This document shows positions 10,470-34,489 of a DNA stretch of 64,000 nt, one piece after another. Source of the DNA: Myxosarcina sp. GA_180221_E-2-1-MAG-40_15. Its GTDB lineage: Bacteria; Cyanobacteriota; Cyanobacteriia; Cyanobacteriales; Xenococcaceae. The position numbers and the translations under genes are program-made. The stretch's first letter is position 1. Each line of letters begins with the position of its first letter. The notes beneath the pieces were generated by a model. The model was not told where the DNA came from. It did no database searches and saw nothing but the letters and a program-made list of their open reading frames with translations. The stretch lies in assembly GCA_020692205.1 (NCBI GenBank), contig JAIMKV010000009.1:1-64000 (forward strand), given 5' to 3'.

Positions 10470-10701
10470 ATAACAATTAAAATTTTAGATGCTTGCTTTA
10501 TAATCATAGTTCTAAAAACAATCATAGTCTCTATTTTCTAATGCTTATAACAATATTTAGCACTTGAAAAAAACGTCACTTGTTGAGATAATTTCTGATA
10601 GATAAACGATTAGATTTCGCAAGTCTGATCAATTAAAATTGCAACTTTATCAAAAGATATTTGCATTAAATCTAAATATTAAATTAAATTAAATTTTTAG
10701 T

Positions 10702-11043
10702 ATGCCTCAATTAACTCTCAATTTAGTTCAAGGAGCAGTTAGCTTCAACTTCTCCACTGATGCAGCACAACAACTACAGGCAGAAATATCTACCCTGATG
10801 CAAAGCCTCAAAGCGATTGCCAAGGCTACTCCTGGTGCAGGCAATCGTCCAGTTAAACAAGAATCAATGGAATATCGCTATACAGGTGATGTGTTTTTAG
10901 AAATTTTTTGTAATCCTAATATTTATCCTAGTCCTTTTGCCGCAAAAATTTTGCTTACTCTGCGAGATGATCGCATTCGGTTAACTAGTGAAGCCGAACT
11001 GACTCAGTTAATTGAAGATTTGAATGTTTTTCTCGAAAGCTAA
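10702..11043 (+). CDS. Conserved cyanobacterial hypothetical protein, 113 aa
   Basis: A small acidic, soluble protein without membrane segments. It begins MPQLTLNLVQGAVSFNFSTD and ends in ELTQLIEDLNVFLES. The middle has YRYTGDVFLEIFCNPNIYPS and a strand-like KILLTLRDDRIRL. No known domain is recognised. The leader is AT-rich (10560-10700) and has no obvious ribosome-binding site. It is followed by the second ACTTCTG array and the 26-nt hairpin repeat, so it is probably not in an operon with rsmB. Confidence 0.6.
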   Translation: MPQLTLNLVQGAVSFNFSTDAAQQLQAEISTLMQSLKAIAKATPGAGNRPVKQESMEYRYTGDVFLEIFCNPNIYPSPFAAKILLTLRDDRIRLTSEAELTQLIEDLNVFLES

Positions 11044-11050
11044 TCAACTG

Positions 11051-11122
11051 ACTCCTGACTTCTGACTTCTGACTTCTGACTTACCTAACCTTAAAGTGTT
11101 CTATCCGAACAGGATTTAGTAT
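11051..11122. repeat. ACTTCTG array 2 plus 26-nt hairpin repeat (copy 1)
   Basis: The tandem ACTTCTG array (11051-11082) is followed by the palindrome TGTTCTATCCGAACA (11097-11111) and then GGATTTAGTAT (11112-11122). The 26-nt unit recurs with one substitution at 15562-15587, again after an ACTTCTG array and just before a gene. The palindrome has 5-bp arms around a 5-nt centre. Confidence 0.75.
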
Positions 11123-11189
11123 GACTGGTTGTTTTTTGCTGGACAAATCCGATTACAATAAATAGGGCAATTTTTGATTTCTCTTCAGC

Positions 11190-12542
11190 ATGGCTTCTAC
11201 TCCCGACTCGCGATCCCTAGCTTTTCTTGCCCTAAAAAATATATATCAACAGAAAGCCTATACTGATGTTGCACTCAATCGCGTGATTAAGTCTACCAGT
11301 AAATCTACTGGCATCAGCCAAGCAGATCGCAGTTTTGCTTGTGAGTTGGTTTATGGAATTGTGCGTCGTCAGCGTACTTTAGATGCCTTGATCGATTTAT
11401 TAGGCAAGAAAAAAGCTGCGCAGCAACCTCCAGATTTAAGAATTATTTTGCATCTAGGTTTATATCAGCTACGGTATTTAGATCGCATTCCTGCTTCGGC
11501 TGCGGTTAACACTAGTGTGGAATTGGCAAAAAATAATGGGCTTGCTAAACTTGGTGGGGTAGTTAATGGCTTGTTACGGGGATATATTCGTCAAGCTGAT
11601 AGCGATCCGCTGCAACTACCAGAAGCTATGATTGCAAAATTAGGCGTGAAGCATAGCTTTCCTGACTGGATTGTCGAGACTTGGTTAGAACAATTATCGA
11701 TTGAAGAAGTAGATCGCTTATTGGCTTGGTTTAATCAATCACCCAAAATTGATTTACGGGTAAATAGCTTGAAAACTAGTATGACCGAAGTAGAAACTGC
11801 TTTTAAAGCCGTTGGTGTTGAAGCAGAACGAATACCTAATTTACCTCAAGGTTTGCGACTAGAGAGTGCAGGTGCAGTTACCGATTTACCTGGATATAAA
11901 CAGGGATGGTGGGTAATTCAAGATGCTAGTGCGCAGTTAGTAACGCATTTGCTCGATCCGCAGCCTGGAGAGACGATTATTGATGCCTGCGCTGCACCAG
12001 GAGGAAAAACCACTCATATAGCTGAATTGATGGGAGATCGAGGCAAAATCATCGCCTGTGATCGCGCTGCGAAACGCTTAAATAAAGTCAGGGAAAATGC
12101 GGCGCGGTTACAGTTAAACTCAATTCAATTTGAAGTAGGAGATAGTCGGGACTTGGCTCAATTTGCTAATATTGCTGATAGGGTATTGTTAGATGCACCT
12201 TGTTCAGGCTTGGGTACACTTCATAAACGTCCCGATATTCGTTGGCGACAAACATCCCAAGGAATTGAGGAACTTTTTACCCTTCAAAAGGAACTATTAG
12301 AACAAGCAGCTACTTGGGTAAAGCCGAAAGGGATTTTAGTTTACGCAACTTGTACTCTTAATATTTTAGAAAATGAAAAGGTAATACAATCATTTTTGGC
12401 AAATAATTCTAATTGGAGTATTCAATTTCCTGCCGATGGGATCGCCGAAAGTTGGTTGGCAACTGAAGGCTGGATTAAAGTTTATCCCCACCAACATAAT
12501 ATGGACGGATTTTTTATGGTGGGATTAGTACGAGATTGGTGA
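11190..12542 (+). CDS. rsmB: 16S rRNA (cytosine-967-C5)-methyltransferase
   Basis: 450 residues. The N-terminal NusB-like RNA-binding domain (about 1-150) contains DRSFACELVYGIVRRQRTLD. The C-terminal SAM-dependent domain has motif I DACAAPGGKTTHIAELM, motif IV DAPCSGLGT and motif VI YATCTLN, with the two cysteines expected of RsmB-type m5C methyltransferases. It modifies 16S rRNA during ribosome assembly. It overlaps or abuts the next gene (TGA at 12540-12542, ATG at 12544), so the pair is co-transcribed. The start at 11190 fits the usual ASTPDSRSLAFLALKNI beginning. Confidence 0.92.
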   Translation: MASTPDSRSLAFLALKNIYQQKAYTDVALNRVIKSTSKSTGISQADRSFACELVYGIVRRQRTLDALIDLLGKKKAAQQPPDLRIILHLGLYQLRYLDRIPASAAVNTSVELAKNNGLAKLGGVVNGLLRGYIRQADSDPLQLPEAMIAKLGVKHSFPDWIVETWLEQLSIEEVDRLLAWFNQSPKIDLRVNSLKTSMTEVETAFKAVGVEAERIPNLPQGLRLESAGAVTDLPGYKQGWWVIQDASAQLVTHLLDPQPGETIIDACAAPGGKTTHIAELMGDRGKIIACDRAAKRLNKVRENAARLQLNSIQFEVGDSRDLAQFANIADRVLLDAPCSGLGTLHKRPDIRWRQTSQGIEELFTLQKELLEQAATWVKPKGILVYATCTLNILENEKVIQSFLANNSNWSIQFPADGIAESWLATEGWIKVYPHQHNMDGFFMVGLVRDW

Positions 12543-31353: not shown

Positions 31354-31470
31354 ATGCTGCTTACGCTTAGAAAATAAGTCTTTGGTCAGATGGAAACAGC
31401 CTTGGATTAATCGTACTTTTGGATAGAAACTAATTTATTCAAAGTATCAACATAGGTAGGAAATTACTAA

Positions 31471-31686
31471 ATGCTATTAAAAAGCAAAGAAGATGATGCC
31501 TTGGTAGAAATTGCTGAAGTCACTGATTTGATCGATCCGTTTAAAGAAGAAGTAATGGTACAAGTTCAAGAAGGACAAAACGAACAGCCTCCCGAACCAG
31601 TTAAAAAATCTGATTTGGTTTTTCCTTCGGGCGAAGATCTTCCTCAGTGCTGGATAGATAGTAACTATAAAGCTAAATCAAAATAA
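31471..31686 (+). CDS. Small acidic conserved protein, 71 aa
   Basis: Begins MLLKSKEDDALVEIAEVTDL and ends with the distinctive KSDLVFPSGEDLPQCWIDSN segment, a pattern seen in short cyanobacterial proteins often called hypothetical. Strong acidic character, no membrane helix. TAGGAAATTACTAA before the ATG contains a plausible ribosome-binding site. Its 3' end abuts the IsrB element, and the guide-like flank of that element may lie in its tail or just after it. Confidence 0.65.
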   Translation: MLLKSKEDDALVEIAEVTDLIDPFKEEVMVQVQEGQNEQPPEPVKKSDLVFPSGEDLPQCWIDSNYKAKSK

Positions 31687-31689
31687 ATT

Positions 31690-31882
31690 TGGCGTTGCTG
31701 ATTTAAGGGTTCAATAACCCCAACCTGCCCTTCGGGACGAGGTAGGGGAGTGTGGGATTCAGTCCACCATAACCTTTGAATAGCGCAATTGAGTCTTAAC
31801 CTGATACGTACTCTCAAGTATTTCGCTAGCTTGAGTTATCTACAACCCTTCTGATTCAAGGGGCTTCTAAAGGGAGGACATT
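31690..31882 (+). ncRNA. Candidate omega-RNA region of the IsrB element
   Basis: A 193-bp spacer directly upstream of isrB, where IscB/IsrB systems encode their omega-RNA. It holds a strong hairpin: arms CCCCAACCT (31718-31726) and AGGTAGGGG (31740-31748) with an inner CCC-TTC-GGG. Two further pairing-prone stretches follow (31798-31835 and 31847-31870). The GC-rich patches stand out from the surrounding AT-rich spacer. Known omega-RNAs carry the guide at their 5' end, taken from DNA flanking the element, so a guide would lie around or before 31690. The exact ends cannot be seen. Confidence 0.6.
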
Positions 31883-33040
31883 TTGATTGAGATGCGCAAA
31901 GCGACTAAATACTATATAGGATTATCTCTTATGCAACGAGTACCAGTAGTAAATCCAGATAACAGCCCCGCTATGCCCTGTAAAGCTTCTAGAGCCAGAC
32001 GTATGGTTCGAGATGGTAAAGCAGTAAGCAAACGAAACAAGCTAGGTATCTACTATATTCAGTTAGTAGACGAACCTAGCGGTAGAGAAACTCAATCTAT
32101 TTCGGCTGGTGTCGATCCAGGCAAATATTATTCTGGGATAGGTCTACAGTCAAAGATATTTACTTTGTTTACCGCTCATTTGTTTCTACCTTTTGAAACT
32201 GTTAAAAAGCGCATGGAACAGCGTAGAATGATGCGCCGAACTAGGAGAGGGAGAAGAATCAACCGCGATCTGGCTTTTTCTCTTCGCGCTCATAGACAAA
32301 AACGGTTCTCTAACCGTCGTAGCAATAAACTTGCCCCTAGTATTAAAGCGTCGAGATTGCTAGAGATTAGAGTCATTACCGAACTAGCTAAAATCTATCC
32401 GATTAGCTCTATTTTCTACGAATACGTCAAAGCTAAAACAGTAAAAGGTTGTTCATTTTCTCCCGTCCAAGTTGGACAAAAATGGGCAATTGAGCAGTTA
32501 TCTGAGATTGCGCCTGTCATAACCAAGTTTGGTTGGCAGACTAGTAATCTAAGAAAGCACTTGGGTTTACCAAAACAGAAGTTAAACAAGAAAGAAGCTA
32601 TTCCAGCAACTCATGCAGTAGACGGAATTACTCTTGCTGCCAGTCAGTTTATTGATTATTTGCCTTTTGAAAATTCCGAAGGTAGAGGTCATTGCTGGTT
32701 GGGGAAAATAAAGATAACTAATGCACCATTTTTTGTGATTAGAAGACCTCCTGTTTCTCGTAGACAGTTGCACCTAATGATTCCAGCCAAAGGTGGAGTC
32801 AGGCGCAAATATGGCGGAACTACTACTAGACATGGTGTCCGAAAAGGAGATTATGTAGAAGGAGTTAAAGCTGGTATCCAATACCAAGGCTGGTGTTCTG
32901 GCGACACAGCTAAACAAATAAGCATCTCAAATGCAGTTTGGAAGCGTGTTGGTCAGTTCACCGCATCTAAAGTAAGGTTGTTGCAACGTTCAACAGGATT
33001 AATTTGTACACAGGAAATGGATTTCAACGTCGCAGTATAA
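31883..33040 (+). CDS. IsrB-like RNA-guided nuclease (HNH-less IscB relative)
   Basis: 385 residues from TTG 31883, with GGAGG 5 nt before it. ATGs at 31892 and 31931 are alternatives; the last best fits a typical IscB N-terminus. Order: PLMP-type domain (PAMPCKASRARRMVRDGKA, 29-47), RuvC-I GVDPGK (D78), arginine-rich bridge helix (about 110-130), RuvC-II FYEYVKAK (E180), RuvC-III THAVDG (D247), and a basic C-terminal domain with RRKYGGTTTRHGVRKGDYVE. No HNH Cys pairs or HNH motif lie between RuvC-II and RuvC-III, which are only about 65 residues apart, as in IsrB. The acidic triad is intact, so nicking of the non-target strand guided by an omega-RNA is plausible. No TnpA is near, so it must be moved in trans. 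Confidence 0.82.
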   Translation: MIEMRKATKYYIGLSLMQRVPVVNPDNSPAMPCKASRARRMVRDGKAVSKRNKLGIYYIQLVDEPSGRETQSISAGVDPGKYYSGIGLQSKIFTLFTAHLFLPFETVKKRMEQRRMMRRTRRGRRINRDLAFSLRAHRQKRFSNRRSNKLAPSIKASRLLEIRVITELAKIYPISSIFYEYVKAKTVKGCSFSPVQVGQKWAIEQLSEIAPVITKFGWQTSNLRKHLGLPKQKLNKKEAIPATHAVDGITLAASQFIDYLPFENSEGRGHCWLGKIKITNAPFFVIRRPPVSRRQLHLMIPAKGGVRRKYGGTTTRHGVRKGDYVEGVKAGIQYQGWCSGDTAKQISISNAVWKRVGQFTASKVRLLQRSTGLICTQEMDFNVAV

Positions 33041-33054
33041 AATACTGGTTTTCG

Positions 33055-33096
33055 TTTCCTCCCACACTTGGCAAAGCCGAAGTATGGGTATCCACA
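33055..33096. mobile_element. Right-end hairpin of the IsrB element
   Basis: After the isrB stop an imperfect inverted repeat (CCCACACTTGGC ... GCCGAAGTATGGG, about 33060-33088, 3-nt loop AAA) resembles the subterminal hairpins that IS200/IS605-group TnpA recognises. The exact cleavage point is not determinable. Confidence 0.55.
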
Positions 33097-33398
33097 AAAA
33101 CATTTTATGATGAAACCAACAGCAATACTGTTCATAGTTATTAGCTATTAGCTTTTAGCTTATGGGCGGTAAAGCTTCGCAAGGATTTGTTACTTTGTCC
33201 GAAGCATTACTTAGCTATTGTCGGCAACTTAAAGGTACAGTTTGTGAATTAACTTGGTCAGTTGATCGAAGTTGGTTTTGAAATTTTTAAAAATCTTTGA
33301 TCGCACCTATTAACTTAGATTAGGTTCGGTTGAATTGACTACGCTTATGGTTTACTGGTTTTCAGCTTTTAGCAAGTCAAATCTAAAAGCGCTGCATT
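33097..33398. other. Spacer after the IsrB element
   Basis: Contains a TTAGCT-type tandem repeat (33137-33161) and one short open frame from ATG 33162 to TGA 33279-33281 (39 codons, MGGKASQGFVTLSEALLSYC). It has no recognisable domain and no ribosome-binding site. The short frame may be a remnant of a gene interrupted by insertions. The stretch AGGTTCGGTTGAA near 33322 recurs near 24970. Confidence 0.4.
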
Positions 33399-34489
33399 TT
33401 ATAAATCAAGCAGATATTCAGCATATTTTTGATAAACGCTAATTCCTGGTATATTTGCTGTAAATTCTGCTGGGAGATTATACTTGTCTGTGGTGTATTC
33501 TTCTCGGACTAAAGCGATCGCCTTATAAATATTTTCCCATTTTTTGAGTAGTTTAATTAACTGCCCAAATTCAAGATAAGCTTTGCTATGTCGATTGGTT
33601 AATCCGATTACCTGTAAAATTTTGGCATAAGCTTGAGGAGTGCTTTCGGCTTGAGAAATGCCTAGAATTGGACCTAGCTTTTCAAAACTTTCATAATTTT
33701 CCAATACTGGAGAAATCAAATTATCATTCGTGATTAAATCTTTTCCTTGAAGACTCTCTACTACATCTGAAATGCTCTTCAGGATTGAAAAATCTTGCAG
33801 TTCATACTGCTTAAATAATGCTAGAAGTTTTAATCCCAGTTTATATTGGCTCAGAACCTTAATTTCTGTAGCGTAGGTATCAATTGCCGCTCTTCCTTCC
33901 TCGGTGGTAATTAGGGGCAAAACTTCTACCTGTTTTTGGTGAATTTTTCTGCTAAAAGCCTCTTTGTCGAGATCGTCTGCTAAATTATCGGCAACATATT
34001 GATAAAATTCCTGCTGTTTACGGCTACGATAGCGTAACTCAGTTTGTTCTAGTCGTAAAAAGCTTTTTTGAGCAATGATAGCTGCTTGCAACAACTCAAC
34101 ACAATTGCCGAGTCCTCGATATCCTTCTGCTTCCCTAGAGATATTTATCTTGATTCTTAACAGCAGGAGAAATTCTTCATTGGCGAATTTGTGATTATTG
34201 ATATTTTCTGCATTTTGACCAACTAAGGTAATCTCTTTAAAAGAGCGATTATGTAGGCTGATTGCACCTTGCGGAACTTGTGGCTTGCCATATTGTTCTT
34301 GATAGTTACTTTTGTAGAATTAAAAATGCCCTGGTCAACAGAGGTTGATAATTTATGCTGACTTTGAGCTAAAGAAATTAGTTGCTGCTGACTATGAATA
34401 TTTGCGGCAGCGACATGAGCCATACCAATGCTGTTTAAACCTAAAATTAGGATGGAAGTCCCCAAAGAAAAATATTGCCGCTTTGCCAT
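33399..34489 (-). pseudogene. Exported hypothetical protein split by one frameshift
   Basis: An ATG at 34489 opens a signal peptide (MAKRQYFSLGTSILILGLNS then IGMAHVAAANIHS) and runs to 34223. In the second frame, open from about 34321 to 33399, the sequence continues as YKSNYQEQYGKPQVPQGAIS and on through a long helical region to SVYQKYAEYLLDL. The two frames overlap by about 100 bp around an A4/T5 homopolymer near 34310-34325. A single-base change would join them into one protein of roughly 360 residues. No known domain is recognised. It may be a real mutation, a phase-variable tract or a sequencing error. An internal TTG at 34092-34094 could otherwise start the 231-residue downstream part. 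Confidence 0.65.

What the first reader, a model, noticed from the sequence alone, without database searches (positions are those of the whole stretch)
31883..33040. Intact IsrB-type nuclease in a cyanobacterium
The protein has a PLMP-type domain, a bridge helix and all three RuvC acidic residues (D78, E180, D247), but no HNH domain. That matches IsrB, the RNA-guided nickase of the OMEGA group. It seems free of frameshifts.
Basis: partly seen in the sequence, partly recalled or inferred. Interest (0 to 1): 0.8.

Follow-up and report, generated by a model that had tools for sequence, protein, structure and literature searches.

The report
IsrB RNA-guided nickase element in cyanobacterium
A cyanobacterium carries one apparently intact copy of a small mobile element made of a guide RNA and an IsrB DNA-nicking protein; this is a known kind of system, but its relatives turn out to sit unusually often exactly in front of the start codons of ordinary genes.

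Summary
The ORF is a full-length IsrB: best solved match DtIsrB (8dmb, E 1.4e-53), RRXRR domain, no HNH match, RuvC residues D78/E180/D247 invariant in an alignment of 36, dN/dS about 0.1. The TTG start is probably wrong: its first 16 codons lie in a guide RNA, and ATG 31931 (369 aa) is likelier. The element splits a short repeat, so its presumed guide resembles 19 other genomic sites. It is the only copy found; the one Y1 transposase match looks unrelated. Two cyanobacterial IsrBs with the same RNA architecture are already active in print: a new member of a known kind. Unexpected: in relatives the TAM's ATG starts an ORF of 60 or more codons in 33 of 56 insertions (background about 20%; blind replication 7 of 12, or 13 of 25 without score cut-off), including metH-, leuD-, secF- and rimM-like genes. 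Our limited paper searches showed no report of this.

The parts
31690..31709 (+). Presumed guide region: 20 nt of host DNA just left of the element; 31691-31709 reads GGCGTTGCTGATTTAAGGG, the end of a dispersed short repeat
   Evidence: Left limit of homology among elements is TTCAATAACC at 31710; position of the guide by analogy with DtIsrB; 20 genomic sites with up to 2 mismatches over 17 nt, self included, against 1 for the reversed pattern
31710..31929 (+). omegaRNA scaffold, from left element end to terminal hairpin
   Evidence: Alignment A2, 32 of the 46 loci with both RNA ends found (46 of 71 considered): 32 of 37 predicted pairs with double changes; with added helices 96.8% of cells paired against 25-48% when slid. 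A covariance model of its core matches in 42 of 47 loci not used to build it, E < 1e-5. No Rfam match. Folded alone, no more stable than shuffles (z 0.01)
31823..31826 (+). Loop TCGC that pairs with GCGA at 31901-31904 (nexus pseudoknot)
   Evidence: 97.7% of cells paired, 3 of 4 pairs with double changes; matched-against-mismatched test 0 of 2000 permutations; coordinates
31753..31765 (+). SL2, whose loop pairs with the SL5 loop within 31845-31862 (adaptor pseudoknot)
   Evidence: Family-level matched-against-mismatched test 0 of 2000 permutations; three control region pairs not significant. In the window itself only 4 bp (TCAG with CTGA, read by eye) form in that register; the script's longest run there was 5 in another register
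31919..31929 (+). Terminal hairpin GGA-TTATC-TCT (SL7 equivalent) just before the start codon
   Evidence: 100% of cells paired in 32 sequences; 1 of 3 pairs with double change, 1 varying on one side, 1 invariant
31931..33040 (+). isrB CDS, 369 aa (ATG start), RNA-guided nickase by homology
33041..33109 (+). Right element end: hairpin-like stretch, then ...CATTTTATG
   Evidence: Right limit of homology among elements
33110..33113 (+). ATGA, target-adjacent motif on the right flank
   Evidence: Same motif at the BLAST limits of other elements. In 56 right ends of relatives: A 55, G 1; T 56; G 56; A 52, G 4; those ends were placed by eye at an NTGA or ATGG, so the T and G are partly by construction
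33110..33160 (+). Right remnant of the dispersed repeat split by the element (end approximate)
   Evidence: Joined flanks match unoccupied copy L116, 85% over 68 nt across the junction

Best explanation
This is a 1400-bp IS200/IS605-superfamily OMEGA element (31710-33109). It encodes an omegaRNA that runs up to the isrB start codon, and a 369-aa IsrB. The RNA would carry as its guide the host DNA just left of the element. IsrB bound to it would find a site matching that guide followed by NTG(A), and its single RuvC would nick the non-target strand. The likely role is retention: after excision the rejoined site is guide target plus ATGA, and nicking it would favour recopying the element from a sister chromosome (by analogy with TnpB and IscB; recalled, not read here). 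Shown by sequence: the protein family, the RNA and its structure, the element ends, the ATGA, and the insertion into a dispersed repeat. Inferred: expression, guide use, nicking and retention. The only Y1 transposase match in the assembly looks unrelated, so this copy is probably stranded or mobilised only in trans.
For: Protein. RNA. Ends and TAM. Insertion into a repeat. One IsrB and one RNA in the genome. Near relative G012, whose neighbouring gene is 96% identical in protein, lacks the element there. Published: DtIsrB nicks the non-target strand, TAM NTGA; CwIsrB and DsIsrB (cyanobacterial) are active with NTG TAMs and have the same predicted pseudoknot arrangement (PMC9581776: first of seven parts of the text, section 8 and passages seen). 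A Microcystis gene with an IsrB-like predicted structure was found inserted into phage Mic1 at ATGA with 207 bp upstream and 59 bp downstream (PMC11237433, two passages).
Against: No expression or activity data. The window RNA alone folds no better than shuffles (z 0.01), and its adaptor pseudoknot is only 4 bp. The only Y1 protein found scores weakly (21.8 bits, 27.5 with its neighbours in the frame, cut-off 23) and looks to me like a REP-associated transposase (MPDHVHLLI, family reading recalled), so present-day mobility is doubtful. No base-exact donor site in an orthologue: G012 lacks the element but also the repeat, so the empty site rests on paralogous repeats.
Confidence: 0.93

Rival explanations
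1. It is a decayed relic: protein and RNA look intact but the system no longer works in this genome.
For: Single copy, no clear IS200/IS605-type transposase; weak adaptor pseudoknot in the window; many partial or stop-bearing matches in relatives.
Against: Open frame, 110 of 112 conserved columns kept, catalytic residues intact, dN/dS 0.09-0.12 (this averages over lineages and cannot exclude recent loss).
Confidence: 0.2
2. It is an IscB that lost its HNH domain, or another RRXRR protein, rather than an IsrB.
For: Shares the RRXRR domain and weak similarity with IscBs.
Against: Best sequence and fold match along the whole length is DtIsrB. The adaptor pseudoknot, described in print as conserved in IsrB RNAs and degenerated in IscB RNAs (PMC9581776, passage), is supported by covariation. 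The aligned homologues are of similar length (their own HNH content was not searched).
Confidence: 0.03
3. It has been taken over by the host as an RNA-guided regulator or anti-repeat factor directed at the dispersed repeats its guide resembles.
For: 19 other genomic sites with up to 2 mismatches over 17 nt; 13 of these 19 are followed by NTG.
Against: Apart from the two ends of one transposon-like stretch (L117, L129), every other site with NTG carries 2 or 3 mismatches within 3 nt of the TAM. The insertion is absent at the same place in the nearest relative. RuvC residues are intact.
Confidence: 0.05

Closest known systems
CwIsrB and DsIsrB (Crocosphaera watsonii, Dolichospermum; PMC9581776 section 8)
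   Same: Cyanobacterial IsrB; omegaRNA with SL2-SL5 and SL4 pseudoknots; NTG TAM, here ATGA
   Different: Different host; no activity test here; their sequences were not compared directly
DtIsrB (PDB 8dmb)
   Same: Full-length homology, PLMP-like part, RuvC, bridge helix, C-terminal part, NTGA TAM, RNA pseudoknots, terminal hairpin before the start codon
   Different: 35% identical in the fold match; shorter scaffold here (220 nt against 262 nt)
Microcystis IsrB-like gene that entered phage Mic1 (PMC11237433, passages)
   Same: 207 bp before and 59 bp after the ORF; inserted at ATGA
   Different: Inserted inside a tnpB gene; the window copy sits in a repeat
IscB / HEARO RNA
   Same: RRXRR domain, RuvC, guide RNA upstream (recalled for IscB)
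   Different: No HNH; no Rfam match to HEARO or any family at gathering level

Membership tests
IsrB | Split RuvC with D, E, D and bridge helix | tested here: met
IsrB | No HNH domain | tested here: met
   No HNH in Pfam at E up to 1; 8dmb aligns over residues 17-373
IsrB | PLMP domain | tested here: met
   Aligned with 8dmb; motif reads PAMP
IsrB | omegaRNA upstream with nexus and adaptor pseudoknots | tested here: met
   at family level (adaptor weak in the window itself)
IsrB | TAM NTG(A) at the insertion site | tested here: met
   (from insertion sites, not from a TAM assay)
IsrB | RNA-guided nicking of the non-target strand | not testable with these tools
   Needs an assay
IscB | HNH inserted in RuvC | tested here: not met
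   IscB equivalog below cut-off
HEARO RNA | Rfam model match | tested here: not met
Autonomous IS200/IS605 element | TnpA (Y1) in the element or genome | tested here: inconclusive
   One weak PF01797 match elsewhere in the genome, RAYT-like by my reading; the element itself has no second gene; the assembly is in 131 contigs

The most novel reading that the evidence does not exclude
Cyanobacterial IsrB elements of the window's kind preferentially occupy the position immediately before a start codon. The ATG(A/G) start serves as TAM and the guide is the last stretch of the host gene's own leader. The element then replaces that leader, and the gene is translated from an element end that in some lineages carries a Shine-Dalgarno sequence. 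This lets it persist in front of indispensable genes.
Probability: 0.5. Interest if true: 0.6.

Novelty: new member of a known kind. Interest (0 to 1): 0.4.

Why it matters
As an IsrB it adds one well-defined element with known ends, presumed guide and TAM, from a phylum where two members are already active in vitro. The wider pattern matters more. If IsrB elements settle at start codons, that explains how a 1.4-kb element can sit in front of metH-, leuD-, secF- or rimM-like genes, and predicts guides aimed at ribosome-binding regions. That is directly testable by transposition assays and RNA sequencing.

Tried and rejected
Rfam for a known RNA: nothing at gathering level in the window; at E up to 5 in 31400-33500 only two matches, both below their gathering scores and of unrelated families. 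Single-sequence folding as evidence: z 0.01, so not used as support. Short linker in the window (EYVKA-KTVKGC) as a deletion: rejected, since the linker varies in the family. Orthologous empty site: five same-genus genomes (L094-L098) have the neighbouring gene without the element, but homology stops at or just after the end of that gene, so there is no base-exact donor site. 'Insertion only at start codons': rejected; 23 of 56 do not start an ORF of 60 codons or more, the window itself does not, and the TTGA class gives 2 of 14. The background is not negligible: 284 of 1441 ATGA sites in flanks, and 142 of 674 to 170 of 841 when coding interiors are left out.

Rows dropped: 7 of 91 loci as duplicates. 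In one search, 46 of 71 loci considered (of 84) gave both RNA ends; 43 of these went into A1 (left out: one repeat of a locus, two with an unusual length) and 32 into A2/A3 (eleven divergent ones left out). Right ends were placed by eye in 72 of 84 loci, always at an NTGA or ATGG, without using the ORF behind it but not formally blinded; 56 are ATG/GTG-type and 16 TTGA-type, of which 14 had enough contig. In the replication, ends were projected by alignment with a score cut-off written before the result: of 46 new loci, 14 had score 25 or more and a TAM, 12 of them ATG, 7 of these with 60 codons or more; without the cut-off it is 13 of 25 ATG calls, counted from the same output. No tree was built; one AlphaFold model, one structure library.

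Full report
What is there. The ORF 31883-33040 is real and open. Pfam gives one domain, RRXRR (E 2e-43, residues 20-184), and nothing else at E up to 1. Among solved structures seven distinct sequences match at E up to 1: DtIsrB, 8dmb, along residues 17-373 (E 1.4e-53), then six IscBs at 1.1e-10 and weaker over part of the length. NCBIfam's IscB equivalog is hit below its cut-off (94 of 175 bits). An AlphaFold model from an alignment of 36 sequences (mean pLDDT 85) again finds 8dmb first (TMq 0.76, 35% identity), then IscBs, then Cas12f and RuvC resolvases. The three RuvC acids are invariant in the 36 sequences, the window departs from 2 of 112 conserved columns, and dN/dS to six homologues is 0.09-0.12, with synonymous changes near saturation in some.

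The host. The window's genome shares its genus with a Pleurocapsa MAG; this rests on the match of contig length and hit position between G001 and L031. The neighbours are secD, secF and ribF by my reading of the ORFs. Matches at E up to 1e-10 occur in 42 of 100 relatives, some of the weaker ones only over the part shared with IscB. In a wider draw of the class, 36 of 388 genomes, own included, match at E up to 1e-60.

The guide RNA. Comparing elements at different places sets the left end at TTCAATAACC, 31710. From there to a hairpin directly before the start codon runs a conserved RNA, found with both ends in 46 of 71 loci considered. On 32 of them RNAalifold predicts 37 pairs, 32 with double changes. 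A structure with two further helices that a covariation scan suggested and one weak helix left out pairs in 96.8% of cells, 35 of 43 pairs with double changes, against 25-48% paired when partners are slid. One added helix is a pseudoknot between a hairpin loop and the strand after the main stem. A second pseudoknot, between two hairpin loops, was tested by matched against mismatched complementarity (mean run 6.25 against 5.46, 0 of 2000 permutations; three control region pairs not significant). These correspond to the nexus and adaptor pseudoknots described for DtIsrB and predicted for CwIsrB and DsIsrB (PMC9581776; first of seven parts of the text, section 8 and passages seen). A covariance model of the core matched in 42 of 47 loci that had not been used to build it, in 6 of 13 genomes of the genus and only once in the window's genome. 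Rfam has no match at gathering level. Against this: the window's RNA folded alone is no more stable than shuffles, and its own adaptor pseudoknot is short. The RNA includes 31883-31929, so the TTG start is most likely wrong and ATG 31931 right.

Ends, TAM and insertion site. Right ends of close relatives finish in a T-rich stretch followed by ATGA. In 56 right ends the four positions are A 55 of 56, T 56, G 56 and A 52; these ends were placed by eye at an NTGA or ATGG, so only the first position is free evidence. In the window the element is 31710-33109 and the TAM 33110-33113. The left flank GGCGTTGCTGATTTAAGGG is the end of a dispersed short repeat with inverted ends: 20 sites with up to two mismatches over 17 nt, self included, against 1 for the reversed pattern (several copies end in a sequence like GATTCAGCAACGCC). 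I call it IS1-type because one related stretch of about 790 bp bounded by inverted copies of this end (L117 and L129) encodes what I take to be an IS1-like transposase; that reading is recalled. Joining the window's flanks gives 85% identity over 68 nt across the junction to the unoccupied copy L116. So the element inserted between GATTTAAGGG and ATGA of such a repeat. Of the 19 other sites 13 are followed by NTG. L117 differs from the presumed 20-nt guide at positions -20 and -8 only and L129 at -8 and -3; the other NTG sites carry 2 or 3 mismatches within 3 nt of the TAM. The nearest relative with the neighbouring gene (G012, 96% identical in protein) has no element there.

Mobility. One IsrB and one RNA were found in the genome. 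The single Y1 match is on another contig and looks like a REP-associated transposase (reading of the motif recalled). The element is therefore probably stranded. A relative has been reported moved: a Microcystis gene with an IsrB-like predicted structure, with 207 bp upstream and 59 bp downstream, lies in phage Mic1 at ATGA (PMC11237433, two passages).

An unexpected pattern. Among the 56 ATG/GTG-type right ends (of 84 distinct loci; 16 more are TTGA-type and 12 were not called), the TAM's ATG begins an ORF of at least 60 codons in 33 of 56 and of at least 100 in 28 of 56. The background is 284 of 1441 ATGA sites in the same flanks (Fisher 3.7e-10), or 142 of 674 when coding interiors are excluded (5e-9). 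Requiring also an in-frame stop within 30 codons upstream after joining flanks: 17 of 33 against 97 of 1441 (1.6e-11). TTGA-type ends give 2 of 14. Of the 33 ORFs, 21 have a Pfam match at E up to 0.001 and 12 have none; 17 show a domain from its first five positions within the first 44 residues, among them Mac (maltose acetyltransferase), HAD, aconitase C-terminal (LeuD-like), ATP-sulfurylase, S-methyl_trans with Pterin_bind (MetH-like), nitrogenase component 1 (NifE-like), Sec_GG (SecF-like), Sua5, CpeS and RimM; the gene names are my reading. A replication with right ends projected by alignment, without reference to the ORFs (66 of 72 exact in leave-one-out), gave 7 of 12 in new loci (binomial 0.0036), or 13 of 25 without the score cut-off. 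In annotated records the next CDS starts exactly at the right end in phages Ma-LMM01 and MaMV-DC (one shared insertion) and in a Dolichospermum plasmid, and not in the four other plasmids read (in one of these four it starts 7 nt further on). Nine of 56 right ends carry a Shine-Dalgarno-like sequence within 16 nt before the ATG (related ends, so not nine events). Whether elements target starts, or are merely retained there, cannot be told.

Literature. Searches were: IsrB alone (91 papers, 40 listed); IscB with cyanobacteria and transposon; ISC transposon, IscB, target site; start codon with TnpB, target-adjacent motif and transposon end; IS605 with start codon, insertion site, cyanobacteria; IsrB with start codon; IscB with start codon, transposon insertion, guide RNA. 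Their capped listings showed no report of the start-codon pattern. The founding ISC and OMEGA papers are not held and might contain it.

Verdict. The finding is correct: a new member of a known kind with published active cyanobacterial relatives. The start-codon pattern, found on the way, lifts its interest.

Noticed in passing
L002, L004, L010, L013, L016, L020, L040, L060, L062, L085, L090 and others: Right end of IsrB elements abuts the apparent start codon of ordinary genes more often than background.
   Followed up: yes
L139, L140 (phages Ma-LMM01 and MaMV-DC): Microcystis phages carry an IsrB element with its RNA, directly before a small annotated gene.
   Followed up: partly
L195 (G011:C7:3085606-3085732): An omegaRNA core match without an IsrB match nearby in the list, possibly a stand-alone RNA.
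   Followed up: no
L012, L021, L026, L042, L051, L064, L065, L087, L089: Right element ends with a Shine-Dalgarno-like sequence shortly before the TAM ATG.
   Followed up: partly
L117/L129 (G000:C81 about 10478-11267): Transposon-like stretch (IS1-like by my reading) whose two inverted ends resemble the presumed guide of the window's IsrB.
   Followed up: partly
L022-L025, L030, L066-L071, L073, L075-L078: A second group of cyanobacterial IsrB elements with TTGA instead of ATGA at the right flank, not associated with long ORFs there (2 of 14).
   Followed up: partly
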